Shown here piece by piece: positions 32,570-59,694 of a stretch of DNA of 64,000 bases. Numbering within the stretch: the stretch's first letter is position 1; each line of letters starts with the position of its first letter. The DNA is taken from positions 148,650,257 through 148,714,256 of the forward strand of contig OY987298.1 of assembly GCA_963920635.1 (NCBI GenBank), given 5' to 3'. Source of the DNA: Pseudeuparius sepicola. Lineage: Eukaryota > Arthropoda > Insecta > Coleoptera > Anthribidae. The position numbers and the translations under genes are program-made. The notes below the pieces were generated by a model. That model made no database searches, was not told where the DNA came from, and worked only from the letters and a program-made list of their open reading frames with translations.

Positions 32570-32577
32570 GTAAGAAC

Positions 32578-37174: not shown

Positions 37175-37182
37175 GTAAGAAC

Positions 37183-37340: not shown

Positions 37341-37984
37341 GTGATTGGCTGAAAGAGATTCTAAAATTACAGTTACTAGTTTAAAACTGGTTCAGGATTG
37401 CTCGGTGAACATAGCTAATATTTTTATCTATTTGTGGTTTAAATAGGTTGTTATTTTTTGTTGTTTTTTTTCCACGATAAATTTTATAACATGCAGATAT
37501 TTTGATGCTAAAAATGAAAAACAGTTTCACGATTGTAATTATATACCATATTGGTATGGTATTATTACTTACCAGGACCATCATAAACGAAGCAATTCAT
37601 AATTATTATATTATTAAACAATCATTTGCCTGAACGGACTTTGATTATTTTCCTAGAATTAAAATAAGTAAATTAATAGTCCCTACTTAGGTATTTCCCG
37701 GATTTCTTTTTAGTTTTATTATTCTGCCAGTTTTCCACCAAACGGATGAGTGGAGTTTTTTTTTTCGGGTTTTTTTGGAACGGAAAACTGAAAACGGAAC
37801 TCGGACAAATTCAAATCAATTAACAACAAATAAATACAATTATAAAACAACACATTAACAAGAAACATACAAAACAATTAGATACAAAAATACACAAGAA
37901 AATCGAGGAAAATAAACGAATAATTAAAATCATAGACCAAAAAAGTGAGGTTAAGAAACAATGTCTAGATGAGGTAGATCTTGG

Positions 37985-38020
37985 CCTGGACTAGGGTTCC
38001 TAAGGAACCCTAGCCTGGAC
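37985..38020. repeat. Micro-palindrome insertion H1
   Basis: Palindrome CTAGGGTTCC-taa-GGAACCCTAG (37991-38013) between direct repeats CCTGGAC (37985-37991 and 38014-38020). The sequence without it (GGCCTGGACCAACACTATAT) exists as a paralogous site, reversed, at 60437-60461. Confidence 0.9.
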
Positions 38021-38065
38021 CAACACTATATTAATATACTGTCAGTGTCGGTCCAGCCAGGATTA

Positions 38066-38105
38066 GCTAATGGAACAGAGATCCTATGATCTCTGTGGCT
38101 AATGG
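38066..38105. repeat. Micro-palindrome insertion H2
   Basis: Stem ACAGAGAT/ATCTCTGT (38075-38096) in a 24-nt insert between direct repeats GCTAATGG (38066-38073, 38098-38105). Confidence 0.88.
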
Positions 38106-38123
38106 CACAGACTTAACGAGTAA

Positions 38124-38340
38124 TACAGACAATTCCTTAGCGACATGTGTCAAAAGGAGACTCGCTTTTTAGCGAAATATCTTCTAAAGACATTAATAAT
38201 GTGCATTTTATTTGATTTTACGTTAATCTACATAACAAAGAGATTGTATTAGAACCAAATTTATGCTTAAAATACTGTCTTGTCTTCCTGTAAATTGAAA
38301 TGGAGACTCGCTTAATTTTGACACATGTCCGTAAGGAGGC
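38124..38340. mobile_element. Possible short MITE
   Basis: Inverted arms around GACATGTGTCAAAA (38139 and 38308-38335) and GGAGACTCGC. Ends are not sharply defined and no target duplication is clear. Confidence 0.4.
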
Positions 38341-38665
38341 TTCTGTTGCAAAGCTATTTATTCTGGGCTAATGGCCACAAGGCCAAATTTGAGCGAATGA
38401 CCAGAAATAACCGCGGTTCGCGGTTACTTCAGGTTATGCCCTTTAATGTCACCAGTGCTATAACCATTTTAGTCGCTCAAAAGCAATCGGTTATTTGTTG
38501 GTCATATTAGGGGGTAGATGTTTTGTATGTTCGGCATCTCGTAAAGCATTAAAATATAAAACAAATAATACTATAATCACTAAAAATTAATAATATTTTG
38601 GCATTTTTTTCTCTTAAACGAAGAAGTAAATGAGTGGCCTCAATATCTTTTTCTGTACTCTTTTT

Positions 38666-39212
38666 GGTAATTATGGAACACACCGTATGCACGGCCCGAT
38701 TTTCTTGAAATTTTGGCTACCTCCCTATTTTCGAGGTCTCTGAACACGAATCTGGCCTCAGTTTGTGGCGCTCGGTCGGAGTTTCCGAGAAAATGAATTT
38801 TCAAATTTCCTTTGACACCTCACTTTTATAATTGAGGTGAATTTAGCTCAATCTGATCATGACCCTATTTTACACCCTTTGCCACATCGAAACCTCGCAA
38901 AAAACCCGCAGAAAACCAGAAATTTTGAAAGATTTTTGCCGTGTTTACGTCCGGCCCGGCCGCTGTTTTCGCCCGACAGCCACGCGCGCCGGCAGTTTGA
39001 GCTGCATACAGTAAAAATTCATAAGGATTATAACCACAAATATCACCGTGAAAAGTGAGGTGTCAAAGGAAATTTGAAAATTCATTTTCTCGGAAACTAC
39101 GTCCGAGCGCCACAAACTGAGGCCAGATTCGTGTTTAGGGACCTCGAAAATAGGGGGGTAGCCGAAATTTCAAGAAAATCGGGCCGTGCATACGGTGTGT
39201 TCCATAATTACC
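38666..39212. mobile_element. Foldback MITE with 8-bp target duplication
   Basis: 547 bp. Ends GGTAATTATGGAACACACCG and inverse, arms of about 170 bp, GC-rich centre (38935-39000). Flanked by CTCTTTTT at 38658-38665 and 39213-39220. It appears to interrupt a coding-like stretch on the minus strand. Confidence 0.85.
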
Positions 39213-39219
39213 CTCTTTT

Positions 39220-39415
39220 TTTGTCCAAATTATTTCTGAGTTGGAAGGTGTACTCAAAGTAGATGACGATGTTGATGGCCTAGGCTCACAATTGGCCAAT
39301 TTGTTGGCTTTCACAAAAGAACCAGCAGCTTCATGATCTACAGGCCTAGGTTCAGAATAACCAGATTTGGCCTTTACAAAAGCACATTCATGCAGCTTCA
39401 TGATCTAAAATAATT
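39220..39415 (-). CDS. Coding-like exon of unknown gene, cut by a MITE
   Basis: Minus frame MKLHECAFVKAKSGYSEPRP, then VDHEAAGSFVKANKLANCEP and RPSTSSSTLSTPSNSEIIWT, preceded by an acceptor-like attttag at about 39413. It contains two repeats of a 26-residue unit (FVKAxxx...EPRP). If the MITE at 38666-39212 is removed, the flank beyond reads STEKDIEATHLLLRLREK in a different frame across an A-run. No family recognised; may be a pseudogene or transposon gene piece. Confidence 0.35.
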
Positions 39416-39607
39416 TGCAAAATTTCAATGACAAAGGTATAGGTACATAAAAACTTTTGGATTTTACGGTCGATGGAAGAATCAACGTATTTATCTTCGT
39501 CCATTTCAATAATAAATTCCTAACTTTTTATAATACTGGCGAAAAATCAGTCTTTTGTTTATCTTTGTGGGGTTAGAATTCAACATTCAACACTACAAAA
39601 ATTTAAT

Positions 39608-39655
39608 GGTGATATCATAGACAAACCCAAAGAGAGGTTTGTCTATGGGTGATAT
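39608..39655. repeat. Micro-palindrome insertion H3
   Basis: Arms CATAGACAAACC/GGTTTGTCTATG (39616-39647, 8-nt loop) between direct repeats GGTGATAT (39608-39615, 39648-39655). The same 12-bp arms occur at 53689-53738. Confidence 0.92.
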
Positions 39656-39694
39656 ATAGTGATAATCCGCGTTCCTTTTGCCGCTACACTGAGA

Positions 39695-39768
39695 ACTTTA
39701 GCTCAAGGTTAGTTCCACTAACCTTGACCACAGAATATTTTAGTTATTCTGTGCCTTGACTTTAGCTC
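39695..39768. repeat. Nested micro-palindrome insertions H4a and H4b
   Basis: H4a: CAAGGTTAGT-tcc-ACTAACCTTG (39704-39726) between ACTTTAGCT repeats (39695-39703, 39759-39767). H4b: a 25-nt palindrome, arms CACAGAATA and TATTCTGTG (39729-39753), between CCTTGAC repeats (39722-39728, 39754-39760), inserted across the edge of H4a. Confidence 0.92.
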
Positions 39769-39850
39769 AGTTGTTAGCCGAACCACTCTGTTTTTTCCTG
39801 TCAAAGGCCGTCATCTTGTGAAACGGTCATTTTCCCCACCACCAAACTGA

Positions 39851-39896
39851 GCCAATATCAAAGTCTAGAGAAGTATTCTCTAGACTTTGCCAATAT
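39851..39896. repeat. Micro-palindrome insertion H5
   Basis: Stem of 14 bp, loop gta: CAAAGTCTAGAGAA / TTCTCTAGACTTTG (39859-39889), between direct repeats CCAATAT (39852-39858, 39890-39896). Homologous palindrome at 50440-50470. Confidence 0.92.
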
Positions 39897-40095
39897 GCTC
39901 GTTCTCGATAGTGAGTGTCCTCGCGAGGATGTGCTTGAAGGGTGAAGGGGGAGGTAAAAAATTTCACTTTAGCTCACATTCTCATTTGTAAAAGCAACTG
40001 CCACCAACTGAGATAAAGTAAGAATTCTTAAGAAAAGTGGCAAAAGGAACGCGGCTAATGTGATAGTGGAGAAAGATACAAACATAAATAAAACA

Positions 40096-40140
40096 GCTCC
40101 AAATATAGACTTATAAGCATAATAAGTCTATGGCTCCAAA
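40096..40140. repeat. Micro-palindrome insertion H6
   Basis: Arms ATAGACTTAT/ATAAGTCTAT (40105-40131) in a 29-nt insert between direct repeats GCTCCAAA (40096-40103, 40133-40140). Confidence 0.9.
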
Positions 40141-40412
40141 GCTCGGTATTTATCGGTTATAAGTTATAAATAAATGTCATGTTGATGACGTCACAAAGGG
40201 CTTGTTGATGACGCGAAATTCTATTACCGTTATTAACCAAAACCGCTCGAAAATCATTAGTAAATACCATTTGTTACCGGTAATTATTGGTCATTCGTTC
40301 GAATCCGGCTTTTAAACTATATATGTTAGTTCTTCTTCTTCTTATCCTTTTATAGCCTCTGCTCTTGCGAGTACTTTAGCCAATATGGGGCCTACGCCAC
40401 CTCTTTGTTGAT

Positions 40413-41036
40413 ATACCCCGATTACTGTAAGAAGTCCCGATTTTGTCAGATGACATTCTCCACAAAATCCCTAGGAATTTTTTGTTAACCATGGGTATAA
40501 CATTGGTATATGTGTCTCAACCAGTTAATGACGTCACACATTGATTTATGATGTGAAAAGTTACCCAAGTGATACGAAAAAAAGAGCATAATAAAATAAA
40601 AACCCTAATGCAATCACGATTATGCCGCTACAAATAAAAATAACTATGACTACAACTCATTTTAATAATAATTTCAAATGTCATGGAAACACTTTCGTTT
40701 TGGTATTTTGTAATAATCAGCTGCTTTTGGCAGCGTCTAGGGGCGGACTCAGGCAAATTTAGCTTCGGTGTGTCAAAGTGACAGTGAATAGGTTTTCCAG
40801 ATGGTTCAAACTGGTTCAAACATTCGGTAATGAAAATATTCGCGGGTTTTGTACGTTTCGTGAGTTTTACCGTCATCTGTGCTGTTCTTGTTCGTGTTAC
40901 TTTTCGTGTTATTAGTGCAAATGGGCTCGTTACTGACCTGAACTTATGACCCGGTTGCATTTTTTGCTGCATTGATGCCAACTTAGGATATCGAAATTAC
41001 CAATTGACAGTCCCAGTAAGGACTTCTTAAAATAAT
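40413..41036. repeat. Dispersed repeat, full copy 1
   Basis: About 620 bp, nearly colinear with 50555-51186; a third copy at 61790-61987 holds only the right third. All end in ggacttcttaaaataatttg (gac in copy 2). Left-truncation with a common right end is what retroposition produces. No long frame; class unknown. Confidence 0.8.
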
Positions 41037-41053
41037 TTGAGAAGGATATGACT

Positions 41054-41102
41054 AGCTAACCTATCGAATTGATATCTACTTGTCAATTCAATGAGCTAAC
41101 CT
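41054..41102. repeat. Micro-palindrome insertion H11
   Basis: GAATTGA...TCAATTC arms within a 31-nt insert (41063-41093) between direct repeats AGCTAACCT (41054-41062, 41094-41102). Arms less perfect than in the others. Confidence 0.7.
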
Positions 41103-41221
41103 CCTAAAGCTTTATTTAGAAGGTCCGTTGTCCAGCTATACAGGTATATAGGTTGGCTAATGGCCACCGGCTTAGACAAGGAAAGAGCCTTGTTTTAGGT
41201 TACCAGCCACCACAAAATATA

Positions 41222-41717
41222 CAGTGACCGGCAGAAAGTTAGACACAAATGGAAAACTTTTTTATTATTAATTTCTCAGAAAATTTTACTCTTGATAAAA
41301 GTTGGTGCATCATTTCAAACTAAAAACGCACATATGAAAATTTAAATATATATTTTTGGATACGAGGTAGATTCAAAAATATTAAAATAACTCAAGAGTA
41401 AAGTACCCTTATTTTTTAAAATACGGTCAAAAGTTACTTACAAAAGTTGTTTGGAATCAAAGGTGGATGTCAGATTTAAAGTCACAGCCACCGAGCCACC
41501 TAGTTAAAAAAGAAATTTAACTTTTTTTTGTATTTTTTCGACCACCCTCTGTACCTATTACAAAAAACGAAATACTGCAAGCGCAACTTATCATCGGATA
41601 ACACATGAATTTGCTACTAAACTTTAATTTTGTTCGATTAGCAGCTAGAAATTTAAATTAATCGAAATCAGTTAAAAAATATTTAAATTTTTGTGTCCAA
41701 CTTTCTGCCGGTCCCTG
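41222..41717. mobile_element. TA-flanked MITE
   Basis: 496 bp; ends CAGTGACCGGCAGAAAGTTA and inverse ...TTTCTGCCGGTCCCTG, flanked by TA. Ends resemble those of the 23.7-kb element in style (mariner-like). Confidence 0.85.
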
Positions 41718-41898
41718 TATATAGGTTAATAGGATGTGTCCAGAGCTGGGCGGATTTTAGGCGAATAAAGGCGAATAACCATTAATAACCGGTAAGTACC
41801 CTCCGACCAAAAATCCGTCGGAGTAAGTACCAAACACATTTACGCGATTCGGTTATTGTTGGTTATAGCCCTCTGACGTCACAAAGAAGCCCTTCATA

Positions 41899-41941
41899 CT
41901 TCATACAGAGAACAAGCCCTTCCTTGTTCTCTGCTTCATAC
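41899..41941. repeat. Micro-palindrome insertion H7
   Basis: CAGAGAACAAG/CTTGTTCTCTG arms (41906-41933, 6-nt loop) between CTTCATAC repeats (41899-41906, 41934-41941); a further overlapping CTTCATAC stands at 41892. Confidence 0.9.
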
Positions 41942-41947
41942 GTCATC

Positions 41948-42373
41948 GTTATAACCGACAATAACTATGCCAAGTATTATATCTTTGAAAAGCTCAAAAA
42001 TGGCAGATTTTATAAGGCCACAGCCAACTATGATTTACATTTAAAAAAACACAAGTTTATGCCATATCTCAAAAATCACAAACAACATAAAAAATTGGAT
42101 AAGCTTATCTTGTTAAGCCTAAAATTATCTACAATTTTTGTCTCTACAGTTTTTCTGTATAATCAGAAATAACGGAGCTACAGAGATCTGATGAAATAGC
42201 AAAACATCTCTCTTTTCAAAATATCTAGTGAGCCATGAACTTTTTTAAAAATCCAAAAGGGGCATTAGATTGAGCATTCAAAACTGCAATTCTTTCCCCA
42301 TTTAACCTTTGTTCTAGCTCTGCTAGTTTCCGAGATCACCATAGTGTGGGCATCGAAAAAAAAACTCACCCTG
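41948..42373. mobile_element. Single arm of the 62.4-kb foldback family
   Basis: Colinear with the right arm of 62424-63951 (tgccaagtattatatctttg ... aaactcaccctg, then TA). The opposite arm is absent. 42374-42845 has no recognisable feature. Confidence 0.75.
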
Positions 42374-42845
42374 TAGATTCCTTGACATTGTGGTATATCA
42401 TCTGTGGCTAAAGGGATTACCTCTTCTTTGAGACACCCTATATGAGAAATGATAATATTTTAACTTTTCATGAGTATACATGTGCCCTCGTTTCTCAAAA
42501 AAAAAACAGATTCATTTCAAATTTAGGTAGGAAGTAGGTATACCTATAGCCTATAGCCTCACTTAATTATTCTAAATAAAATAACTTTTTTCCGAAACCT
42601 TAAAAAGTGTATGTTACTCCTATCATTTAATTTGTTTATTTACCTTAATGCTTCGAAGACCTGAGTAGCAATGCCAACAGAGCAAGGAGAACACAATAAA
42701 ATGTTGTCAGTTGCTACCAAGAGACATTAGAGCAGTAAAAAAACAACTAATATTTTTAACAAACGTTCACTTCATATTTTCTAATTGCAATTTTTTGTTG
42801 TGTGATTTCTCCTTTATTCGCATATGTCACAATACTCGTTCAGAA

Positions 42846-44049
42846 TTAAACGTGTTCTTCCTCGGTATCAACAGATTGTGTTTCAGCCACAATTTCACAT
42901 TTTGTCATCTTATTATATGCTGCTTCTACATGCAACGATAATTTATGTTTTTCAATGATATCAGTTAAAGTCGAGTTATTATGCTCCTTATTCTGATGCT
43001 TTCTCAGGTGTGCTTTGTTCTTAGTATTGTAAGAACACTGGCTGCAAATAAAATTATCTTGCGTCCGATGTACTTTCTCTATGTGAATTCTAATATGAGT
43101 CTTATGGAAAGTGTAATAGGTGCAGTGCGGACATTTGAAAGGCTCTACATCTTTTACATTATGTATCTTATAGAGGTGTGATGTGAGTGGTAGTCGGGAC
43201 TTGCAAGAATACTCGCAGATTTGGCAACTAAATCTTGGTTTCAAGGCATGAACACTCATTTCATGTTGCTTGACATTGTTCTTCTTGAATGATTTGTAGT
43301 CACAACTAGCGCACTTGTACGGGGAATCACTGTGAACCTCAACTTGGTGCTGTTGCAAGGCTGGCTCATTATTCGCTTTGAATGAACACTTTGTGCAAGT
43401 GAAGTTTTTTTCGTGCATCCAGTTAATATGTGATTTCAAAGCCCCCTTGTGAAATGTGCGAAAATCGCAATGGGGGCATTTGAAAGGCTCCCCATTTTTG
43501 ACATTATGTTTCTTATAGAGGTGTGCTCTGATCGTTGCCTGGCACTTGCAAGAATACTCACACATTTTGCAACTAAATCTTGGTTTCGAGGCATGAACAT
43601 TCATCTCATGTCGTTCGACATTCTTCTTGTAGAATGAACTGTAGTCACACTTACGGCACTTGTGTGGTTTGCATGAGGAATCACTGTGGATCCCAGCTTG
43701 GTGCATTAGCAACTTCGGTAGAGTATTAACTTTAAATGAACACTGTTTGCAACTGAATTTTTTCTCATGTTTGATACTGATATGCTTCTTAAGGTCTCCC
43801 CTAAAAAATGTGTGATATGGACAGTGTTGGCATTTCAGTGGCTGCTCGTCTTTCACTTCATGTCTCTTGTAGAGGTGTGATTTGTATGTCTGTGGTTTCT
43901 TGCAAGAGAACTGGCAAAATTCGCAGCTAATCTCTCTTTTGGGAGCACACACTTTGTTTTTGTGTAGTTTGACTTCATGCTTTTTGTCTGAACTGTCATC
44001 GCAAATAGGACCTCCAGTATCAGCATCCTGATTTTCATTATCAAAGTCA
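42846..44049 (-). CDS. C2H2 zinc-finger array protein, family B, terminal exon (B4)
   Basis: The exon starts at 44049 after the acceptor tctcttgcag with leader SDFDNENQDADTGGPICDDS. Eleven fingers in the family-B cycle (ISCEFCQFSC, LKCQHCPYHT, FSCKQCSFKV, HKCRKCDYSS, FSCKMCEYSC, FKCPHCDFRT, FTCTKCSFKA, YKCASCDYKS, FSCQICEYSC, FKCPHCTYYT, FICSQCSYNT), then a tail ending in VDTEEEHV. About 401 codons, no breaks. The tail differs from that of B1/B3. Probable nuclear DNA-binding factor; the upstream exon is not seen. Confidence 0.87.
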
Positions 44050-44319
44050 CTGCAAGAGAAAACACTATTGTTAAATAAGAACATTTTCACGTAAATAAGT
44101 GCTGTAGGAAAAACACGCAAGAGCTTATTATTCAAAATGCAAAGGCACAGTCCAAGATCTATACAGTAAAAAAAATGTGCGAAAGAACCATAAATTCAAT
44201 AAGTTAGAAGCTTAGAAAATATAAAATATTATGTTGTATTTAAGTGACCATTTTTTGAAACCGTCAAAAAAGGTTTTATATATAATATTTTATTAATATA
44301 TGTATATTCCGAAAATGCC

Positions 44320-45530
44320 AGGGTAAATTTGACAGTTCCGTAAAAAAGTTACTTTTTTGGAGATACTTCTAAAATCATCCAAAAAAAGTCTCACCACACT
44401 TGCCAATGAATAAAAACACACTGTGCAAGTGAAGTTTTTTTCGTCCATCTGGTTAATATGTGATTTCAACTCCCCCTTGTGAAATGTGTGAAAATCGCAA
44501 TGGGGGCATTTAAAAGGCTCCCCATTTTTGACATTATGTTGTCTGGCACTTGCAAGAATATTCACACATTTTGCAACTAAATCTTGGTTTCGAGGCATGA
44601 ACATTCATCTCATGTCGTTCGACATTCTTCTTGTAGAATGAACTGTAGTCACACTTACGGCACTTGTGTGGTTTGCATGAGGAATCACTGTGGATCCCAG
44701 CTTGGTGCATTAGCAACTTCGGTAGAGTATTAACTTTAAATGAACACTGTTTGCAACTGAAGTTTTTCTCATGTTTGAAACTGATATGCTTCTTAAGGTC
44801 TCCCCTAAAAAATGTATGATATGGACAGCTTTGACATTTCAGTGGTTGCTTGTTTTTCACTTCATGTTTCTTATAGAGGTGTGATTTGCATGTATGTGGT
44901 TTCTTGCAATAGAACTGGCAAAATTCGCAGCTAATCGCTGTTTTCGGAGCACACACTTTATTTTTGTGTAATTTGACTTGATGCTTTTTGTATGAACCTT
45001 CATCGCAAATAAGACCTCCAGTATCAGCATCCTGATTTTCATCATCAAAGTCACTGCAAGAGAAAACACTATTGTTAAATAAGAACATTTTCACGTAAAT
45101 AAGTGCTGTAGGAAAAACACGCAAGAGCAAGAGCTTATTATTCAAAATGCAAAGGCACAGTCCAATAAGATCTTTACAGTAAAAAAATGTGCGAAAGAAT
45201 CATAAATTCAATAAGTTAGAAACTTATAGAAGATATAAAATATTATGTTATTTCAGTGACCATTTTTTGAAACCGTCAAAAAAAGATTTTATGTATAATA
45301 TTTTATAAATATCAAATATGCAGTGACTAAATGAACTGAGTGTACTTTGGGCCATCTAAGAAATGTTTTAAAAGGTTACTTATTTCTGATATGATGAAAT
45401 AAAAATGTTCAAATAAAATGTCACGGTAAATTTAAATTTGACAGTTCCATAAAAAGTTACTTTTTTAGAGATACTTCTAAAATCTTTCAAATTAAGTCTC
45501 AGCACACTTGCCAATGAATAAAAACACATT
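44320..45530. repeat. Tandem segmental duplication (B4/B5 exon start plus upstream spacer)
   Basis: 44320-44415 and 45425-45530 are homologous spacer (aaatttgacagttccgtaaa..., cacacttgccaatgaataaa), and 44050-44300 matches 45054-45300. The repeat unit is half an exon plus intron-type sequence, about 1.0-1.1 kb. Confidence 0.8.
44412..45053 (-). pseudogene. Zinc-finger terminal exon, family B (B5), truncated duplicate of B4
   Basis: The exon starts at 45053 after the same acceptor, leader SDFDDENQDADTGGLICDEG. Four fingers are near-identical to B4; finger 5 is broken by a 26-bp deletion (after CKCQT) that shifts the frame into an immediate stop at 44534. Past it, finger 6 (FKCPHCDFHTFHKGELKSH) and the start of finger 7 can be read in another frame until homology ends at 44412, where the B4 upstream spacer begins. 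One finger 1 residue changed (QFYCKKP). Confidence 0.8.
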
Positions 45531-45838
45531 TGAGTTGAATGGAATTAATTTTATTAGGTTGCATAATTGCAATGTTCACAGACGGTATGTACAAAAATAA
45601 CTAACCCTTATACAACAATAATTAAGAAACCACTGATCATTTCCATTTTTAAGTTATCTTTTGAATGGTGTTACAGATTTTGTTGATTTGGTTTATTAGG
45701 TAATTCTATAGACTTTTGTTATGAGAATCGAATATACAATTAGTATATAATATATATCTTGAAAGAAATTCTAAGTAGAAAATGTATTTTTCTATAAAAG
45801 AAATTTAGACACGAAAACCTTGAGAGGATATATGTATA

Positions 45839-46935
45839 CAGGGTGATTGAGTTTTATTCTGGGACAATTCACCGGTGAAAAAAAAAAATAACCACACTTT
45901 CTTGTGTAAATTATATATTTTTAAGGCCTTATAAGATAGTTGGGTGTTGCAATCGGAAAAAATATGTGGACTTTATTGAATATTTACCAAACTAGTTGAG
46001 ATATTTAAGTCATATTTGGTACACGTTATAACGACATGGGTTAGCATAAAACCTGTTAATATCAAACTCCTTGAACAACCAGTGGCTGGGATTGTTTTTA
46101 GAAAAAAAAATCACTTTGTATAGCAACAAAATGTATTTGATTTCTTATGTAAATTTTTATACAAAAACGTTTTCTTAGCATTTTTCCATGTGTGTCATCG
46201 TTTCATGGCAAATTTGATTTTTTTTATTATTTCGGGGTATTTCTGAAAAATTATCTAAAAAATGTGTTTAATACTTTAAGTAAAGTAACTTTTTTCAATA
46301 AACTTACCTATTTTAAGCTATACTTTTGAAGATACAGGGTCTAAACCATTTGAGGAAGATAAAATGAATGTTACGCTCTGTATCTTGAAAAGTAAAACCT
46401 TGAATGGATAAGTTTATTGGGAAAAGTTACTGAATTTAAAGCAAGAAACACATTTTTTCTACTTTGTCTTACTTATGGAGCAAATTTTTTAGTTAATTTT
46501 TCAGAAATACCCCGAAATAATACGAAAAAATAAAATTTGCTATGAAACCATGACACATAATAATATGATGAAATGCCAAGTGAACGTTTTTGTTTACAAT
46601 TAAAATTTTCATAAGAAATGGAATACATTTTATTGCTATACAGGGTGGTTCATTTTTTTTTAAACAATTATACTAATTGCCCACTTCTACGCTACTGGTG
46701 GTTCAAGGTGTTTGATATTAACAGGTTTTATACTAACCCATACCGTTATAACGTGCACCAAATATGATACTAGTTTGGTAAATATTCGACAAAGTCCACA
46801 TATTTTTTCCAACTTTAACACCCTGTAACTTTTTTATAAGGCCCTAAGAAGATATAGTTTACACAAGAAAATACGGTTATTTTTTGGTTTTCTATCATCT
46901 CTTGAAGTGTCCCAGAAAAAAACTGAATCACCCTG
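45839..46935. mobile_element. Large foldback element, TA target site
   Basis: 1097 bp with arms of about 500 bp; ends CAGGGTGATTGAGTTTTATT and inverse ...GAATCACCCTG, flanked by TA. Short direct copies of the surrounding spacer (tttttctataaaagaaattta) lie at 45790, 46975 and 48890. Confidence 0.88.
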
Positions 46936-47139
46936 TATATCTTGACGAAAGTAGTTCTAAGCAGAAATTGTATTTTTCTATAAAAGAAATTTACACACGA
47001 AAATTTTGCGACAAGCTTCTATATCGTATAAAATTGTATAATGTAGCAAAATTATGGGTTTGCTTTGGTTTTATTTATTTCAAAGTTTATTTTCTTCTTT
47101 TTAAAAATATTTTTTACTATTAATTAAATTAATTAAATC

Positions 47140-47285
47140 TCGGCTTTGCAATAAATTATGAGCAAAGCTTCTCTTGTGGACCACTTTAACATGTCGATTA
47201 ATATTTTGTTTAGTGAAAGTCTTAGTGGGGAGGCATTTATTGAATACTCACAGACTTTGCAACAATTTTCGTGAGTACGCCCTAT
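47140..47285 (-). pseudogene. Family-B zinc-finger relic
   Basis: The minus strand holds CKVCEYS, then after frame changes FTKQNINRHVKVVHKRSFAH, i.e. the second finger type of family B. A remnant of a sixth member upstream of B5. Confidence 0.6.
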
Positions 47286-47399
47286 AGTATCTCAGGAAAA
47301 AGTCAGATTAATTTCAAATTTAGGTGGGAAGTAGATATATTTGTGTCATTGTGACATGCATATTTTTAAGAATAGGCTGTAATTCATCTTGTTTAGGAA

Positions 47400-48250
47400 T
47401 GAAATTATATGTATAATAAATTACCTTTAGATTTTAAGGAGCTAATAAATTTTAAAAAGGGAAGAATAAATTATACCTGAATGAATATTTTGACTATTAA
47501 TACCCTTTTACACTCTTACCCCAGAAAACTTTTAAAGTTAACCTGTGCAGTATGAACATCGTTTTAAAAAATAATTTCAAAAACTAAAAAATTACATTTT
47601 TTGGTTGAAATATATGAAGTGGGCAGCTGAAAGCAGTCAAGAGGAACATACATAAATTAGTAGTTTTAAGTAGTTTTTTTGTATAAATCGGTATAAATTG
47701 ACACGATTAAAATTTTACTTCATACGTACCCCACCGAGTACCCCACCTTACCTTATATTGAAAACCAAAAGAGTAGTATTAGAGAATAATTTCAATAAGA
47801 AAGAATAGGAAGTAATTGGAATTAGATTGGAAATAAATATATTTAGCGGCGTTATGACGTCACAGGCCTTTTTAAAAAAATTACTTTTAATAGCTAAAAT
47901 TATTTCTTGTCGGGCTCTCGCACTTTCATGCGGCACCTAGCAACATTTTACTTTTTTTAAATAATAACAATATTTATTAAATAAGTTTCCATGCGAAAAT
48001 TACATTGGTAATAAATAAATATTGATTGATTAGGGCAAAAGCTAAACTAGTAATGTAACTACAAATAAGTTCAGGAGTCTCTAGTACTCGGATTGCTTAA
48101 GTTCTGTCACAGAATAACTAAAATATTCTGTGGTTCTGTGCTTGTCTGCGTATGTATAATAAATTACCTTTAGATTTTAAGGAGCTAATAAATTTTAAAA
48201 AAGGAAGAATAAATTATACCTGAATGAATATTTTAACTATTAATACCCTG
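47400..48250. repeat. Direct repeat pair of about 105 bp
   Basis: 47405-47510 and 48148-48252 (tgtataataaattaccttta ... actattaataccct). The interval between them includes micro-palindrome H8. Nothing coding. Confidence 0.75.
48101..48139. repeat. Micro-palindrome insertion H8 (same palindrome as H4b)
   Basis: The 25-nt palindrome at 48108-48132 (arms CACAGAATA/TATTCTGTG) is the exact reverse complement of H4b at 39729-39753, but here the flanking direct repeats are GTTCTGT (48101-48107, 48133-48139). Confidence 0.93.
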
Positions 48251-48915
48251 TGATTAATACTATACTGACTATTCCTTCACAATGTTATTATTGTCCTTGG
48301 AAAATAAATAATGTATTTTATTTTACTCAAAATGTGATTGAAGTAAAATAGCAAAACATAATAAAATATTCCTATGTACCTAATAAATTTGTTCAAATTT
48401 GGTATAAGAGGTTTTTTTTTATGATACTGAATAGGTACGAACAATCTAAAATCAAAATTTCTAAAAAAAATCACTAATATATTTTTTGAAGAATCAACCC
48501 CAATTTTCCACACAGGGTTATTATACACACCAATGAACAACATCAAAAGTTGATTTTTGAGTATAAAATTCCCATCTAAATTTGAAATTAATCCTGTTAA
48601 ATTTTTTCTAATACGAAGGTGCACTCATGAAAAGCGAAATACAGTGTAAAAATGTAGCAATTTTTCCTATGGGAAAATATTAAAAAATGTGCTTCTAAAA
48701 TTAATTCATATTATCTTGGATTTTTGGTGGAATCTTCTGAAAGTCGACTGTATTTTTTGTTACTTAACTGTCGCCCAACCAAATACTCTAGTATTTAATC
48801 CCTCTGAAATGAAAAATAATTAGAATATACAGAATGAAATAACATTTGCAATATCTTGAAAGTAATTCTAAGTAGAAAATGTATTTTCTATAAACGAAAT
48901 TTACACACGAAAATA

Positions 48916-49724
48916 CAAATATTCCCGAAAGTTGGTGCATGTTCGATAATCATATTAGGCGTACTTAGAATTGTCAACGACAAAAAGCATACAGGATAAG
49001 TAGGTCAAAAAATATAAAGATTGTACAAGAGTAAAGTACCCTTATTTCAGAAAATTCAGCAAAATGTTATTAAGAAAAGTTGTCTAGAATTAAAAGTTAT
49101 GCCTAAATACCAAAACACGTCCTCCTAAGAAAAAAAAATTTTTTTTGAAAAACAATAATTTCCTAAAAAAATAGTTTTAATATTCACCCTAAACAATTTC
49201 ATAAATCAATCAAAATTAAATTAGTTTCGCATAACTTTGTTCAAATTCAAGCATATTTGTAAAATTACCTTAGATTTTTAATTTTTTAGGGAATCACAAA
49301 TTGCATATGTTTGTTGCAACGATATTAAACAAAACTTTATAATTTCGCAAAAAATCTTCTGAAGAAGGTGAAACATTAGTAATGATAATGTGTATATTAA
49401 AAAACTCTAATTTAGGTGCAAAATTTTTGTTTTAATTGTTTATTAAGAAACCGTAAATTAATTGACGAATTTTTTTTTCTTAGGAGGCTATGTTTTGGTA
49501 TTTAGGCATAGCTTTTAATTCTAAACAACTTTTTTAAAAACCTTTTGCTGATTTTTTTGAAATACGGATACTTTACTCTTGTGCAATTTTTATATTTTTT
49601 TACCTACCCTGTATCAGTGTTTATTTATACTCATTCGGCTATGCCTGTATGCTGTTTAACTTGCAACCATTCTAAGTGCACCTAATATGATTATTGAACA
49701 CGCATCAACTTTTGGCAATGTCTG
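48916..49724. mobile_element. Foldback element, TA target site
   Basis: 809 bp; ends CAAATATTCCCGAAAGTTGG and inverse ...CAACTTTTGGCAATGTCTG, flanked by TA; arms of about 350 bp with more divergence than the 22-kb element. 49725-50430 shows nothing further. Confidence 0.82.
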
Positions 49725-50438
49725 TATTTTGGTTGTGCAATTAATAAAAAAAAGTCCCAATGTTGCACACTTAAATGACCACACTGTATAGTGTGTCCCC
49801 CGGATTAAGTTCACATAAAGTGTAAAAAACAAAAAAAAATCCAGTTGAAATTTGAGCCCGGCTTGATTTGAAACTAATTTGTGACAATTTTAGTTTCGAA
49901 AAATCACGTATTGTATGCTGCCTTGGAAATCTTGGAAATTATGAAGAACAAACTGATGTTCCACATGAGTAAAGTGCCTTTTTGTAGGTTTTACGACAAA
50001 AGTAGGTTTGCGAAATTTCGAAATTTTGATTTTTTGCCATTTTTGCACATTGCTCTAGGCGATTATGAATTTACCTATTGTTATTTATACCAGAAGACAA
50101 TATATTAAATTTGGTAGGTGATCTTGATCTTGCAAACTTGATTTTTAATAATTTATTGTTAGTTTGACAGTATGAGTATGATTTTTTCGATATGACCTGT
50201 TAAAAATGCTATTAGCGATTTTTTTTATAGAAAATCTGGCAGCGCACCTAGCTTTAATCAGCACTTTTTGAAACCGTTGACTGAAATATTTCCAGTCAAC
50301 GCTGAAACCCAAATATCCCAAGTTTTCTGAATTTACTTCGTCAACTTACATTTCTATGGGACCTTATAGTTGCGTTTTTTTTATTTCAAATTAAAAATCA
50401 AATGCTTTGTAAATATTTGAAAATTTTATAAAGATCGA

Positions 50439-50471
50439 CCAAAGTTTACAGAATAATTCTCTAAACTTTGG
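50439..50471. repeat. Micro-palindrome H10 (homolog of H5)
   Basis: Arms CCAAAGTTTA/TAAACTTTGG around cagaataattctc. Of 31 positions, most match H5. Flanking direct repeats are no longer clear (gatcgac, gctggac), so it is probably an older insertion. Confidence 0.7.
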
Positions 50472-50554
50472 CTGGACTGTTGTTGTTGCATTCCCCCTCC
50501 ACCAATTTTTGTCCAACCGCCAGAGGGCTCTGAAAGCTGGTTTTTGGCCGCCAT

Positions 50555-51186
50555 CATATACCCCGATTACTGTAAGAAGTCCCGATTTTGTCAGATGACA
50601 CTCTCCACAAAATCCCTAGGAATTTTCTGTTAACCATGGGTATAGCATTGGTATAATGTGTCTCAACCAGTTAATGACGTCTCTCATTGATTTATGATGT
50701 GAAAAGTTACCCAAGTGATACGAAAAAAAGAACATAATAAAATAATAACCCTATTGCAATCAGGTTTATGCCTCTACAAATAAAAATAACTACGACTACA
50801 ACTCATTTTAATAATAATTTCAAACGTCATGGAAACACTTTCAATTTGGTATTTTGGTATAATCAGCTACTCGCGGCTGCGTCTGTGGTGCGACTGGTGC
50901 GTACTCAGGCAAATTTTATTTCGGTGTTGTGAAGTGACCGTGAAGGTTTTCCGGGTCGTTCAAAAGGGTTCAAACTTTGGGCATTGAAAATATTCGCGGG
51001 TTTTGCACGTTTCGTGAGTTTTACCGTTATCTGTGTTGTTCTTGTTCGTGTTATTAGTAGTTATTCATTGTGCAAATGAGCTCGTTACTGACCTGGACTT
51101 ATGACCCGGTTGCTGCATTAATGCCAACTTAGGATGGCGAAATTACCAATTGACAGTCCCAGTAAAGACTTCTTAAAATAATTTGA
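50555..51186. repeat. Dispersed repeat, full copy 2
   Basis: Colinear with 40413-41036. Ends in taaaataatttgac. 51187-52430 contains GC-richer sequence (51190-51480) without a supported gene. Confidence 0.8.
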
Positions 51187-52434
51187 CTATATGTGCTGAT
51201 CGTGGCCAACAATGGCGGCGGTGCTGATTTCTAGGGGTACTACTGTTGGGACGACCATTTAGGTTCGAGTCTTTTTCTTCCCCTTTTTCACTTCATTTCA
51301 AATAACCCGCAAAAAAACGCAGCTTTCTTATTGGCTTTCCCTCTGCTGTCAGCACAACATGGCGGCAGCCTGTTCCGTACATTTTTATTTAGGAGGTCCG
51401 TTCACTTTGTTCACGCGACGCCCATAAGAATTGACCTTGACCTTTTCGACGACAAGGTCTTGCCGTAGAATAGTAGATCCACAGGATAAACAATATCCAG
51501 TATGAAAAGTCGACGCCATACGCCATTGCTGGTAGAATGCTTTTATCGGGCAGACCAGAATCACTAAAGAATGGAATGCGAGGAATGCATCAGGTATGTA
51601 CTCAAATATATTGGGAATTCCACCAGATTTGGGATTTCCCAGAATTCTTTACCTGTACTTTGCCATCAGTGTGTACCCTTTTCTACTGTTTACTGCTTAT
51701 TATCTGTGCACAGACGTTATAACAATATCCAAACCATTAATGTAAGAAAATAATTTAATCCCGGTCCTGTGTCCCATCGATTTTTATAGGGCGTGGTCTA
51801 CAGTAAAGAAGTAACGTGACTTCAAAGTGAGATTCTGTTGGAGAATGAGTTTGTATAAAAAACGAAAGTCACTACCGCCGAGATCAAAGGCGCCGACAGG
51901 AAGACTTACAACTGGGTATTCCCTGAACTGTGGTAGATCCTTCTGATACAATCCAAGTTTATTGGCGGTGTAATTGTTGTGCACTAGGATTTGGAGTTAA
52001 TTTTTAATCTAAAATACGAGATAAATATACATAAAATACATATTACAATATGCGGATTATCATAATTATCCATTTATTTTATAGGATATCTTTGCTCATT
52101 CCTCTGGCGTTTTCTGTGTAATAATAATTCTGCAGAACATTTTGTGGTACTGGTGTCATTTGAAATAATTGCCAGAGCTTTTACACTTCTCACCAGCCTG
52201 CAAGCTAAACGCGCTAAACCATATTATTTTCGCCATGCTAGTTATTATATTTGGTTATTTCTAATAATCGGCCAGCTGCAACTAATTCTATAAAACTAAT
52301 AATGTACAACATTTTACATTTTTCTTTTCACCTATTTTAAAATTGAAATGACAGTGTCATTGTTTTAGTGTCATATTTTCCTGCTGCTATTTTTGAAAAC
52401 TTGACCCGAAAGCGTGGCATAAACACACATGGCA

Positions 52435-52800
52435 TTAAATACTACCAACCCAAGTGAGTTTTTTGTGTTTATTTTGAAAATCGTTATGCTTTTCATAAAA
52501 CCAATGATCAACTCGAATACTGCATTATATTGCTTATATTTTGATAAAAAATCAGCCAAATCTGATGTCTCGTTTGGAAAAACAATATACCTAAAGGTTC
52601 TGGTAATTTTATTTTAGAGAAGAAGAAGAAAATACATTTCAGGTATATTGTTTTCGCAAACGAGACATCAGATTTGGCTGATTTTTTGTCCAAATATGCG
52701 CAATATATTGTTATATTTGAGTTGAGCATTGGTTTTTTGAAAAACCTAGTAATTTTAAAAACAAACACCAAAAACACACTTGGGTTGGCACTATTTGTGA
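52435..52800. repeat. Inverted repeat whose two arms encode the same peptide
   Basis: Left arm, plus strand: TNPSEFFVFILKI...KPMINSN...DKKSAKSDVSFGKTIYLK. Right arm, minus strand: NPSVFLVFVFKI...KPMLNSN...DKKSAKSDVSFAKTIYLK. The DNA arms are clearly diverged while most residues are kept. Family not recognised. Confidence 0.6.
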
Positions 52801-53640
52801 TAATGCCCCCGAAAGGTAAAATAAACACGTTCCCCTTTCTTCTCTACCCCGGATCTGTGTTCAGGCCTGCCTTTGTATCGTCGATGGAGGAAACGCTTTG
52901 TATTTAATTCAGAATGCGGCTTCTTTCTTTGGTTGTTCTTCCTCAACATAGACAAGAGATTTATATATTGTTCCTCAATCAACGGTTGTTACAGAGCATA
53001 TATTTAGGTACCTATAAAAAAAACAGTCTCACTGCCCTTGGCGGAAAAATTTCGGGCACCTGTTCGCGCAGCCGCCATTTGGGAATAGAATCTGTCAAAT
53101 TAATAGACGCAGCGTCGGGGCCGTTGGGCAGTTTGTAACCGGCTGTATTTGAGGCAATGAATAAAGAACCTTGAGGTAATGCAGTGGCGTAGAGTATGCG
53201 TTTTTGTGCAGGGTAGAATATATCTACCGTTCTAAGTCCTTAATATTGTTATTGTTATCCTGGCGAAGAATGTAAACAAATATAAACTGATTACCTATAT
53301 GTATTCCCCCAATATGGCGTCAAGGTCATTGAATTTGCCGATGTTTTCTGACGAGTAATTTAAATTGCTTGTTGATTTATATTTATATGCTCTAATTATT
53401 ACTAATGCAACGACAGCAACACAATAGTGACTTCCGTTTTTGAGGTTGGTAGTACAACGGCGTGGGAAATAAATTTTAACTTTTGATAGTTTCTCCCATA
53501 CTAAGACAAGGAACTCTTCTATATTAAAGCTAAACTGCGCATGCGTCCTAACTTTTGATGTTTTTTAAGGGCACATGCACGGAGAGGAAAAAAGAATCTA
53601 CAATCAGCAAAACAAAAAACAAAAATCTTATTTTTCCTGG
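52801..53640. other. No supported gene
   Basis: 53030-53140 is GC-richer with a short plus frame and an AATAAA at 53161, which could be a gene end, but no family is recognisable. Confidence 0.3.
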
Positions 53641-53653
53641 CTTGGGTGCGGGT

Positions 53654-53747
53654 GGTGCAGTGCGTAGAAAGAGATCTACGGTGCAGTGCATAGACAAACC
53701 ACAAAATATATAGGTAGACAAACTTGGGTTTGTCTATGGTGCAGTGC
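53654..53747. repeat. Two micro-palindrome insertions H9a and H9b in series
   Basis: GGTGCAGTGC occurs three times (53654, 53680, 53738). Between copies 1 and 2: CGTAGA-aagaga-TCTACG. Between copies 2 and 3: CATAGACAAACC...GGTTTGTCTATG, the same arms as H3, with a longer loop that contains a further TAGACAAAC. Confidence 0.9.
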
Positions 53748-53974
53748 AGATGTGCAAAAAGATAAAAAGTGAAGTGAAGAAGTTCCACAAAGGAACGGAA
53801 AAGCACCCGCTACAGCACCGCATAGTATTTTATAATCGTTAAACTAGTTAGTAAGGACTCGTTTTTAATTAGTTTTATACGCGACTGAATTGTACAAATC
53901 AAAGAGCAGGTAACAGCACAGGATAAACCAACTGTGGTAACAGGTTGTACAAAACCAGAGGATTCCTCTCAACA

Positions 53975-56900
53975 ATGGACGTGTTCGTGTGTCGGCTGTG
54001 CTTAGATTTACTTAAGACTGGGGGTGAGGCGAAGCCCTTTGTTGGAAGGGTTAGGGACATTGTGCAGATCGTGGTTCCCGGACTGGTAAGAATCTCGTAA
54101 ATTATGTCGGTTTTTGGTTTTCCAGAATATAACGATTTTTTGGAAAGACGCTGGGGGCTAGGTTTCAAGATGGCCGTTCGTCCTCGTCTTTTGTTTTGGT
54201 TATTTATGCGTCCATAGGAGGCATTGAGTACCTCAATGATAGGAGGCGATCAAAACAATCTTTGGCGTTCACGTTTTTCAATTTCTTGACTAGGGCCAAC
54301 ATGTGTTTGGTAAGAAAAGGAGTAGAGAAAATAAATGGAAACGGAACTCAACATTAAAGCTGGATTTATAGATTGACGTAACGTAACGCAACCGTAAGAA
54401 GTTGAAACATACAAAAATTGACCGGGCAATTTATAGATTTACGTAACGTATGCCGTAACGTAACGTTTCCGTAAGAAGTTCGTCAACTTTTAACTTCTTA
54501 CGTTATGTCCTTACGTTCGACCAATGAAAACATTGGATTTTATCGATAAGGTAGAATACTGATATATTTGTTTACGTTTTAACTGTTTTTTTCCCTAATG
54601 CTTCTTAGTACTTTGGATAAGTATTTTTATATAATATATTAATATACACAGTGTCCAAGTTACCAAGTTTAAAACTGTACAAATCCGTAAAATCTTCATT
54701 TTTGGAGATAATCGCCTACACATTTTTTTGTTTGAAAGGCCTTCAAAAACCGCTTCTTTTGACCTTCCTACCATTTTCAAAATGCAAATCCAGGGACGGC
54801 TGCGATTTTTTTTACCCCCGATTTTCACAAAAACCATTTAGCAATTTTTTTATTTAAAATCTGACCCCACAGCGTTAATCATAACACACAAAAACCCCCA
54901 TATACCACATTTGAACAAAAAATATACAGGGCGTTCCATTCTGTAGGGTGTCAAAGTTGAGCAAAATAGGAATTTTAAAGGTAACTGCCGAGTCAAGTGT
55001 GCCATGGAATCCCCTCAAAACAGTTGAATGGTCAATAGGACCACTCGAGGTGTTGGTGTGCAATGGTCCAATACAAAATATACAGAGTGTTTTTTATCTG
55101 TGCCATCTCAAATTACTGAATTTTTGGAACTTTATACAGGTCAAAAATCGAGTACCTACCTGTATCAAAACCGCTCCACACACTATAAATGAACTACATC
55201 TAAAAAATACATACAGAAGCCTGCCAGTTAGTAAGTCCATATCAGTTAAGGTGGCTGGTGTGCCACAACACGAAACACACAGAAAATGTATCATCTTAGA
55301 CAGTAACTGTGTTGAGAAAGGTTCAATAATTTAAATGGTTTTTATTTGTTAGTTGGCATTTTGTAAATAAATACATTACTTTTGTGTTTATCAATATTTT
55401 TTCAATGATTCCAGATTCCAGAGCACTCTTGATCCGTACAATAGTTTCATAAAATTTCAGAATTTTGAGATGGCTCAAAGAAAAATACCCTGTATATGTT
55501 TGTAGTAAATATTTTCACACCATTTTGAGTGGTCCTGTTGGCCATTCAACTGTTTTGAAGGGATTCCATGGCACGCTTGACTCGCCAGATGCCTTTAAAA
55601 TTCCTATTTTGCTCAACTTTGACACCCTGCAGAATGGAACTCCCTGTATATTTTTTACTGAAAATTGGTGTACAGGGGTTTGGGGGTGTTCTAATTAACG
55701 CTGTGGGGTCAGACTTTAAATAAAAAAATCGCTAAATGGTTTTTGTGAAAATCGGGGGTATAAAAAAATCATACCCGGCCCTGGATTTGCATTTTGAAAG
55801 TGGCAGGAAAGTGAAAAGAAGCTGTTTTTGAAGGCCTTTCAAACAAAAAAAAGTTTAGGCGATTATCTCCAAAAATGAAGATTTTACGGATTTGTACAGT
55901 TTTAAAGTTGGACACCCTGTATAATAGGAATATTATGTTTTTGTGTACCTAATAAACCAAAGAGTACCAAAGTGTTTTTTTTTTGGGCACAATATTAACT
56001 AGGCACATTATTTAACGAAAAGAAGCAAGAGTTAGCATTTTCTTACATGAAATATTAATACAAACAAGTTTAGTCCAATTCACTGCCCTTGGAACACAAA
56101 AATCTTAAAAAAATATATACAGGGTTTTTCAGAAATACCTGGCATAGATTCTGGAGCATACAGAACTTAAAAAAATAATACTCGTAATATATTGACCATG
56201 TCGTGTCGATCGTCTTTAGTTTTTTAAATACAGGGCGTCCAGGTTTACTGTTTAAAATGAATATTGAAAGCAACTTCTAGTTTATACTAGGTACATTATC
56301 GAAATTTGCAGTTGTAGTTCTGGAGATGAAAAATCAGTAAAAACAGCTTTTACCCACAGCGTAAAGTGCATGCGCCATTATCATATCGCGCATGCGTCAA
56401 ACATAACGTAATGCATCTATAAATTGAAAATCCTGCCCTTTACGTTAACACTACGTTACGGTTGCGTTACGGTTACGTAACGTCAATCTATAAATCCAGC
56501 TTAAAAGTTAGTTTCTCGATTTTCCGTTTATACGAAGATGAATCTGATGGTCAATATTAGAGGCCCTGTATGACACGGAAAGTGACAGTTATTCGTTTTA
56601 ACAGAGGTTGGACAACGATCGGATCTCTCTCTCTGGCAAGGGTCTTATTTTCCCTATGAAATTCATTTTGTGCAACAGACATATATTTTTTCGCTCTTTC
56701 TATCATTCCCCTAGCAGCAGGATGTGTCAAAATTAGATTTTAAGGTTAAGCTAACGACATTTAACTGCCATAAACGTAGGTAGATGAGGGCACAGTTTAA
56801 AATGTATAAAAATATAGATAAAACCAATAAATTGGGTAGGTAGTAAGTATGTTATTTGCAAAGCTTCACTAATAATAATTATTGAAGTTTGAATGGAAAA

Positions 56901-59355: not shown

Positions 59356-59575
59356 GTGAGTGGACGCCTATTCGATTTTCGGATTTTTGGGTTCGGGACA
59401 TGTATTTAAAAAATAATTGGGTTTTGCATTATTTTGTGTGGAATGCAGAATACTGATCGCAAACATTGCCAGACCTGGACCGACACTATATCAAAGACCC
59501 GAGCATGACGTCATATTTCATTGTTGTTTACGGACTGGGGTGGCGCCACTCGACTCAAAAAAATGGCAACTTATT

Positions 59576-59694
59576 AGCTGAGTTCGGCGTTAGTCCTCCA
59601 TTCGCTCTTTTTGCTCCGACAACAATGGTTTCTATGGCAATTTATTGTTGTTGGAGCAAAAAGAGCGAACGGAGGACCATTTCCGAACTCAGCT
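59576..59694. mobile_element. Short MITE
   Basis: 119 bp; arms of about 55 bp starting AGCTGAGTTCGG, flanked by ATT on both sides. 59700-61020 contains only short repeat strings (60411-60461, 60697-60760). Confidence 0.75.

What the first reader, a model, noticed from the sequence alone, without database searches (positions are those of the whole stretch)
37985..53747. A family of ultra-short palindromic insertions flanked by 7-10 bp direct repeats
Eleven cases in about 16 kb (H1-H8, with H4 double, H9 double, H11; H10 without clear repeats): a 16-48 nt near-perfect palindrome sits exactly between two identical short direct repeats, the signature of a transposition-type insertion. They are far smaller than ordinary MITEs. 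None was noticed in the 0-37 kb part. I do not know a described nuclear family like this; they could be minimal mobile elements, or end-to-end remnants left when the inside of an element was deleted.
Basis: partly seen in the sequence, partly recalled or inferred. Interest (0 to 1): 0.9.

Follow-up and report, generated by a model that had tools for sequence, protein, structure and literature searches.

The report
Scars left by departing P elements
The tiny palindromes are best read as the repair scars that P-element-type jumping genes leave when they cut themselves out of a chromosome, probably of an insect, and this stretch holds an unusually dense set of them next to an intact-looking P element.

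Summary
A fixed scan finds 11 palindromic inserts of at most 34 nt between exact 7-8 bp direct repeats, all between 37,984 and 54,247; dinucleotide shuffles average 0.48, maximum 3 in 200. Looser scans and reading by eye bring the list to 18.

They are probably not a family of ultra-short mobile elements. About 0.8 kb upstream of the first lies a 4,597-bp P element (32,578-37,174): 8-bp duplication, 22-bp identical inverted ends beginning CACAGA, and a three-exon THAP transposase frame of 910 residues without a stop. P transposase cuts 17 nt inside each end, so excision can leave up to 17 nt of each end between the two duplications. Drosophila P excisions (Rad51-deficient flies) give this picture: palindromes of about 30 nt, recurrent junctions, templated filler (PMC2895639).

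The palindromes here agree in size, duplication length, recurrence and filler; 11 of 18 have a CANAG-type end like that P element. None carries its end beyond 6-7 nt, so the parents are unseen and P origin is inferred. A further 42-nt palindrome joins the two distinguishable ends of a 980-bp element in the window. Verdict: P-superfamily excision footprints, known in kind, unusual in density.

The parts
32570..37182 (-). P element of 4,597 bp (32,578-37,174) with 8-bp duplications GTAAGAAC and 22-bp identical inverted ends CACAGACTAAACAGACTTGCCG
33217..35682 (-). exon 3 of the transposase: HTH, RNase H N, GTP-binding insertion, RNase H C and THAP9 C-terminal domains
35740..35926 (-). predicted exon 2: second part of the THAP domain (PF05485, 5.2e-12); GT...AG intron borders
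36937..37016 (-). predicted exon 1: ATG and presumed start of the THAP domain; no Pfam match on its own
   Evidence: splice sites read from the sequence
37984..38020 (.). F1: GCCTGGAC duplication around a 21-nt palindrome TAGGGTTCCT...
38066..38105 (.). F2: GCTAATGG around a 24-nt palindrome, right end CACAGAGATC, left end with first base changed
39608..39655 (.). F3: GGTGATAT around 32 nt, ends CATAGACAAACC; left arm continues CAAAG
39695..39767 (.). F4a: outer palindrome CAAGGTTAGT...ACTAACCTTG with 9-bp flanking repeat ACTTTAGCT, split by F4b
39722..39760 (.). F4b: CCTTGAC (7 bp) around a 25-nt palindrome CACAGAATATTTTAGTTATTCTGTG, nested in F4a
39852..39896 (.). F5: CCAATAT (7 bp; 8 in another register) around 31 nt, ends CAAAGTCTAGAGAA
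40096..40140 (.). F6: GCTCCAAA around 29 nt, right end CATAGACTTAT, left end with first base changed
41054..41101 (.). F7: AGCTAACC around 32 nt, right end CATTGAATTGA, left arm with two changes
41793..41831 (.). F8: TAAGTACC around 23 nt, ends CTCCGAC
41899..41940 (.). F9: CTTCATA (7 bp; 8 in another register) around 28 nt, ends CAGAGAACAAG
48101..48139 (.). F10: GTTCTGT (7 bp) around a 25-mer identical to F4b in reverse complement
50269..50309 (.). F11: TGAAACC (7 bp) around 27 nt holding the palindrome CGTTGACTG...; a diverged repeat at 61,053-61,127 (71%) lacks the insert
50433..50477 (.). F12: 31-nt palindrome, ends CAAAGTTTA(G/C)AGAA, related to F5 and of the same length; no exact duplication (5 of 7)
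52939..52978 (.). F15: TTCCTCAA around 24 nt starting CATAGACAA (one recognisable arm)
53655..53688 (.). F13a: GTGCAGTG around 18 nt CGTAGAAAGAGATCTACG; shares its right duplication with F13b
53681..53746 (.). F13b: GTGCAGTG around 50 nt; F3-family ends with other bases between them, holding a copy of TAGACAAAC
53910..53943 (.). F16: GTAACAG (7 bp; 8 in another register) around 20 nt CACAGGATAAACCAACTGTG (5-bp palindromic arms)
54214..54246 (.). F14: ATAGGAGG around 17 nt CATTGAGTACCTCAATG
38015..38056 (.). 42-nt palindrome sharing 20 nt with one end and 13 nt with the other end of the 980-bp element; no duplication found
59468..60461 (.). 980-bp element with 7-bp duplications GCCAGAC; source family of the 42-nt palindrome

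Best explanation
The palindromes are excision footprints of P-superfamily transposons. An element inserted and made a 7- or 8-bp target duplication. Its transposase later cut it out with the long P-type stagger, leaving up to 17 nt of inverted end as single-stranded tails on both chromosome ends. End joining, with short microhomology or templated filler, sealed the tails, so up to 34 nt of palindrome (more with filler) stayed between the two duplications. The region was hit repeatedly, by elements with several different ends, sometimes inside an earlier scar (F4a/F4b) or at the same target (F13a/F13b). Shown here: the duplications, the palindromes, their excess over chance, an intact-looking P element beside them, and a similarity between the outermost bases of many of them and that element. 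Shown in the literature: the 17-nt stagger and the Drosophila scars. Inferred: that each end family belongs to the P superfamily, that the 17-nt stagger holds in this lineage, and the repair route.
For: (1) Eleven short cases against 0.48 in shuffles and no clear excess above 34 nt; 17 of the 18 sites listed are at most 34 nt (2 x 17), and the exception F13b (50 nt) holds a 9-nt copy from its own end. (2) In the same window, a P element with five P-transposase domains, a THAP exon, 22-bp identical ends, 8-bp duplication and a 910-residue frame without a stop; the only solved structure matched is Drosophila P transposase, 2.6e-22; relatives at up to 51% identity among the 120 of 573 listed. (3) The P element's terminal hexamer CACAGA (one mismatch allowed) sits at the border of 12 repeat-bounded inserts, against 1.55 in shuffles (maximum 6 of 200); among the 60 permutations of the hexamer it ranks first (12; next 8; mean 2.9). 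I had already seen that several palindromes begin this way. (4) Drosophila P scars from Rad51-deficient (spn-A) flies have the same layout: 40 of 63 isolates typed in from PMC2895639 Table 1 pass my palindrome test, median 30 nt, range 16-44. One 30-nt junction recurs 14 times there, which fits the identical 25-mers F4b and F10. (5) The two members of the CATAGACAAACC family keep different amounts of each end: F3 at least 15 nt on its left and 12 on its right, F13b 12 on its left and 15 on its right. (6) Duplications of 7 or 8 bp are documented in the P superfamily for Galileo (PMC4168063). (7) The 42-nt palindrome carries the two distinguishable ends of the 980-bp element, one on each side.
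Against: No full-length parent was found in the window for any of F1-F16, and none of them follows the resident P element's end beyond 6-7 nt; only the 42-nt remnant has a parent, with no transposase shown and not known to be P-type. Seven of 18 sites (F1, F4a, F7, F8, F11, F13a, F14) have no CANAG end. All 16 palindromes compared (chosen by eye; F11 in the register that fits) have G at position 5 and 13 have A at position 2, which is also a recalled hAT rule; Drosophila P and zebrafish Pdre2 ends lack G at position 5. In Drosophila 14 of the 40 passing isolates exceed 34 nt, so 34 nt is not a strict limit, and the near-absence of longer scars here is not predicted; those flies also lacked Rad51, so the repair mix in nature may differ. 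The 42-nt remnant shares 20 nt with one parent end, more than 17. F12 and the 42-nt remnant lack a duplication, and F4a has a 9-bp one.
Confidence: 0.82

Rival explanations
1. They are extremely short internally deleted hAT elements (end to end), made by aborted gap repair of hAT insertions and still sitting in 8-bp duplications.
For: 8-bp duplications are also hAT-type (TcBuster, PMC3499496); all 16 palindromes compared have G at position 5; CAGAGAACAAG (F9) resembles recalled Hermes and hobo ends.
Against: hAT excision leaves hairpin-derived changes, small insertions and deletions, not the ends of the element (PMC3499496 passages). Five sites (F4b, F5, F9, F10, F16) have 7-bp duplications in the symmetric register, F4b and F10 only there. 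Random internal deletions should not pile up at or below 34 nt. No hAT transposase was seen in the 17 translated stretches given to Pfam, which are not the whole window.
Confidence: 0.1
2. They are ultra-short mobile elements, a new class of minimal transposon moved in trans by a P or hAT transposase.
For: The same 25-mer occurs at two sites with different 7-bp duplications (F4b, F10); F5 and F12 are related 31-mers.
Against: Junctions differ within the CATAGACAAACC family (F3, F13b). Recurrent identical scars are seen for P in Drosophila (14 isolates of one palindromic junction, PMC2895639 Table 1). P transposase uses internal binding sites beyond the ends (PMC7776569 passages), for which 17-32 nt leave no room.
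Confidence: 0.05
3. Chance palindromes, replication template switching or an assembly artefact.
For: Short palindromes are common in this AT-rich window: 40 with arms of at least 8 bp and 3 G/C.
Against: In one search all 9 palindromes with an exact repeat of at least 7 bp lie at 37.9-53.8 kb, while only 3 of the 31 others lie at 37.9-54.3 kb; 11 against 0.48; shared outer hexamer with the P element.
Confidence: 0.03

Closest known systems
Drosophila P-element excision footprints (P{wa} repair junctions in spn-A flies, PMC2895639)
   Same: 8-bp duplication, partial inverted ends from both sides, palindrome of about 30 nt, recurrent junctions, templated filler
   Different: Natural and clustered here, several end sequences, 7-bp as well as 8-bp duplications, few inserts above 34 nt; parents not seen
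P superfamily transposons of other animals (THAP9-type, zebrafish Pdre2; Galileo)
   Same: Transposase and THAP domains; 8-bp (Pdre2) or 7-8 bp (Galileo) duplications; Pdre2 end begins CATA
MITEs
   Same: Inverted ends, target duplication, no coding capacity
   Different: 17-50 nt, apart from the 25-mer pair no shared interior, junctions variable within a family
hAT transposons and their footprints
   Same: 8-bp duplication; ends with A at 2 and G at 5 (recalled rule)
   Different: hAT excision does not leave the ends behind (PMC3499496 passages)

Membership tests
P superfamily (element 32,578-37,174) | P-type transposase domains (HTH, RNase H, GTP-binding insertion) | tested here: met
   PF12017, PF21787, PF21788, PF21789, PF22824 all above cut-off
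P superfamily (element 32,578-37,174) | N-terminal THAP domain | tested here: met
   exon 2 matches PF05485 positions 23-87 of 87, 5.2e-12; exon 1 alone (26 residues) had no match
P superfamily (element 32,578-37,174) | Inverted ends and 7-8 bp duplication | tested here: met
   22-bp identical ends; GTAAGAAC on both sides
P-element excision footprint | Two copies of a 7-8 bp target duplication | tested here: met
   16 of 18 sites have an exact 7-8 bp repeat; F4a has a 9-bp repeat, F12 none (5 of 7)
P-element excision footprint | At most 17 nt of each inverted end retained, more only with filler | tested here: inconclusive
   17 of 18 at most 34 nt, but the parents are unknown, so the limit of each tail cannot be set; the 42-nt remnant shares 20 nt with one parent end
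P-element excision footprint | Ends belong to a P-type element | tested here: inconclusive
   terminal hexamer enriched and first of 60 permutations, but 7 of 18 sites have no CANAG end and no full-length parent lies in the window
P-element excision footprint | Variable junctions and templated filler | tested here: met
   seen in one family: F3 against F13b; 9-nt copy TAGACAAAC inside F13b
MITE | Multiple copies sharing ends and interior | tested here: not met
   in 64 kb only one pair of identical units (25-mer) and one related pair (F5, F12); CATAGACAAACC units differ inside; genome-wide copies not testable
hAT footprint | Ends of the element removed, only flank changes remain | tested here: not met
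   foreign palindromes remain between duplications; hAT behaviour from PMC3499496 passages

The most novel reading that the evidence does not exclude
The identical 25-mer at two sites (F4b, F10) is itself a mobile unit, so a 25-bp palindrome with no internal sequence can be moved in trans by a P-type transposase: a transposon smaller than any I know of.
Probability: 0.05. Interest if true: 0.9.

Novelty: new member of a known kind. Interest (0 to 1): 0.42.

Why it matters
If right, a plain genome sequence records past P-type excisions and how the breaks were repaired. A genome-wide census would test whether the 17-nt stagger, described for Drosophila P, holds across the superfamily, would give a ratio of excision to retention, and would show whether some regions are repeated landing sites. 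It also warns against annotating such scars as new ultra-short elements.

Tried and rejected
Rejected: ultra-short element family (variable junctions, no room for internal binding sites); hAT footprints (hAT removes its ends); chance. I first leaned to hAT because of the 8-bp duplications and the Hermes-like F9 ends, then to P when a P element turned up.

Led nowhere: tRNA and Rfam scans of the window (nothing above threshold); relatives of the transposase in viral contigs (three pattern matches, none confirmed); the CATAGACAAACC palindrome in viral contigs (none); empty sites among window repeats (one hit flagged as spanning, F11, at 71% identity; a 24-nt match at F1 to the end of the 980-bp element also crosses the junction).

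Dropped before counts: low-complexity arms (fewer than 2 G/C or fewer than 3 letters); low-complexity repeats; overlapping hits merged. The 18-site list joins scan hits and sites read by eye, so statistics are quoted only for the scans. In one search the F13a coordinates were wrong; one search has the right ones. In one search F13b was replaced by an overlapping inner hit during merging. Of the 12 hits, three (44,873; 55,732; 58,782) are not in my list and are probably chance.

Literature: I saw titles and starts of abstracts; none of those listed reports natural clusters of P footprints as far as these show. Three further searches timed out, so I do not claim that none exists. I saw passages, not whole texts, of PMC10983969, PMC7776569, PMC2895639, PMC4168063, PMC2775673 and PMC3499496; the others only as listings.
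Full report
WHAT WAS CHECKED. The window is AT-rich (27-39% GC in 2-kb steps). Six of ten large reading frames given to Pfam, all on the minus strand, match C2H2 zinc fingers. The named relatives among the 120 listed for its transposase are insects (an aphid, moths, butterflies, a firefly, a psyllid), so it is probably an insect nuclear genome; the species is not known.

MORE THAN CHANCE. With one fixed rule, 11 inserts of at most 34 nt are found, against a mean of 0.48 and a maximum of 3 in 200 shuffles made within 2-kb blocks. Longer classes (35-60 nt: 2 against 0.65; 61-150 nt: 6 against 2.6, maximum 9) are not clearly above chance. All 11 lie between 37,984 and 54,247; random placement outside the P element never gave so tight a group in 100,000 trials, a test made after seeing the data. 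A simpler count also shows excess: 41 exact repeats of 8-11 bp with up to 40 nt between them, against 15.6 (standard deviation 3.9, maximum 29 in 100 shuffles); real DNA holds tandem duplications too, so this is only supporting.

THE NEIGHBOUR. A search for inverted ends with flanking duplications up to 6 kb apart found a 4,597-bp element at 32,578-37,174, duplication GTAAGAAC, ends CACAGACTAAACAGACTTGCCG identical over 22 bp. On the minus strand it has an 821-residue frame with five P-transposase domains; the one solved structure matched is the Drosophila P transposase (2.6e-22). In that alignment the three acidic residues that I recall as catalytic in Drosophila fall on acidic residues here; I did not test this further. 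Upstream, a 62-codon stretch matches the THAP domain (5.2e-12), and a short first exon with ATG joins it through a GT...AG intron in frame; the three predicted exons give 910 residues without an inner stop. This is an intact-looking P element; whether it is active is unknown.

THE LINK. The element's terminal hexamer, CACAGA, sits (one mismatch allowed) at the border of 12 inserts bounded by exact 7-8 bp repeats, against 1.55 in shuffles (maximum 6 of 200). Of the 60 rearrangements of the hexamer it has the highest count (12; next 8; mean 2.9). The hexamer comes from the P element, but I had already noticed the likeness, so this is not a blind test. A looser pattern CANAG, chosen after seeing the ends, gives 13 against 1.5. 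Some hits (44,873; 55,732; 58,782) are probably chance. Of the 18 sites listed, 11 have a CANAG end on at least one side (F2, F3, F4b, F5, F6, F9, F10, F12, F13b, F15, F16) and 7 do not (F1, F4a, F7, F8, F11, F13a, F14). None follows the resident P element beyond 6-7 nt, so other P families must be assumed.

THE MECHANISM. P transposase makes a 17-nt staggered cut at each end (PMC7776569, PMC10983969; passages). After excision the chromosome keeps 17-nt single-stranded tails of the inverted ends. In Drosophila lacking Rad51 (spn-A) such breaks are joined to give: 8-bp duplication, up to 17 nt of left end, optional filler, up to 17 nt of right end, 8-bp duplication (PMC2895639 Table 1). One 30-nt palindromic junction was recovered 14 times among the 68 reported, and inserted bases can often be traced to flanking sequence. 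Of 63 isolates typed in, 40 pass the palindrome test used here, with inserts of 16-44 nt and median 30; 23 would be missed by it. The scars here are 17-32 nt, plus one of 50 nt which holds a second copy of TAGACAAAC from its own end.

WITHIN-FAMILY COMPARISONS. F3 and F13b share the end CATAGACAAACCCAA (15 nt); F3 keeps all of it on its left and 12 nt on its right, F13b 12 nt on its left and all of it on its right. F5 and F12 share CAAAGTYTA(G/C)AGAA and are both 31 nt, which can be split as 17 + 14. F4b and F10 are the same 25-mer in opposite orientation, each with its own 7-bp duplication; recurrent repair is the ordinary explanation, a mobile 25-mer the novel one. F4b lies inside F4a, and F13a and F13b share one target copy: repeated hits at the same place.

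A PARENT IN THE WINDOW. The 42-nt palindrome at 38,015-38,056 matches 20 nt of the right end and 13 nt of the left end of the 980-bp element at 59,475-60,454. The two ends of that element differ at position 8 (G or A), and the palindrome carries A on one side and G on the other. This supports an end-to-end remnant with its two ends told apart. The element has 7-bp duplications, and no transposase was identified in it, so its superfamily is open; 20 nt exceeds 17 unless three bases match by chance.

WHAT SPEAKS AGAINST. The numbered end families have no parent here. The ends share G at position 5 in 16 of 16 palindromes compared (list chosen by eye, F15 and F16 not included), which is also a recalled hAT feature; the P element in the window shares it. 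In Drosophila 14 of 40 passing isolates exceed 34 nt, more than here. F12 has no duplication. No whole-genome test was possible.

VERDICT. P-superfamily excision footprints, known from laboratory Drosophila, found here as a dense natural group with several different ends beside an intact-looking P element. The kind is known; the density, the diversity and the 7/8-bp mixture are the interesting parts.

Noticed in passing
29,915-31,837 and 56,558-58,954: Two copies of an element with ends TAGAGGCCCTGTATGACACG and 8-bp duplications (GTCGAAAC; GTCAATAT), 1.9 and 2.4 kb; the one reading frame inside them that was tested (29,918-30,265) had no Pfam match.
   Followed up: partly
59,475-60,454: 980-bp element with 7-bp duplications GCCAGAC and ends CTGGACC; no transposase identified.
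   Followed up: partly
38,666-39,212: 547-bp foldback-like element, arms 162 nt at 96%, with 8-bp repeat CTCTTTTT.
   Followed up: no
801-28,635 and 42,849-44,195 (minus strand): Series of C2H2 zinc-finger reading frames; by eye the 42.9-44.1 kb stretch is partly repeated at 44.4-45.2 kb.
   Followed up: no
49,615-49,643: 29-nt insert between CCTGTAT repeats, ends CAGTG and CATAG: possible further scar or chance.
   Followed up: no
8,293-8,298: CAGAGG between CCTCGGC repeats, the only CANAG-type repeat-bounded insert before 37.9 kb; may be chance.
   Followed up: no
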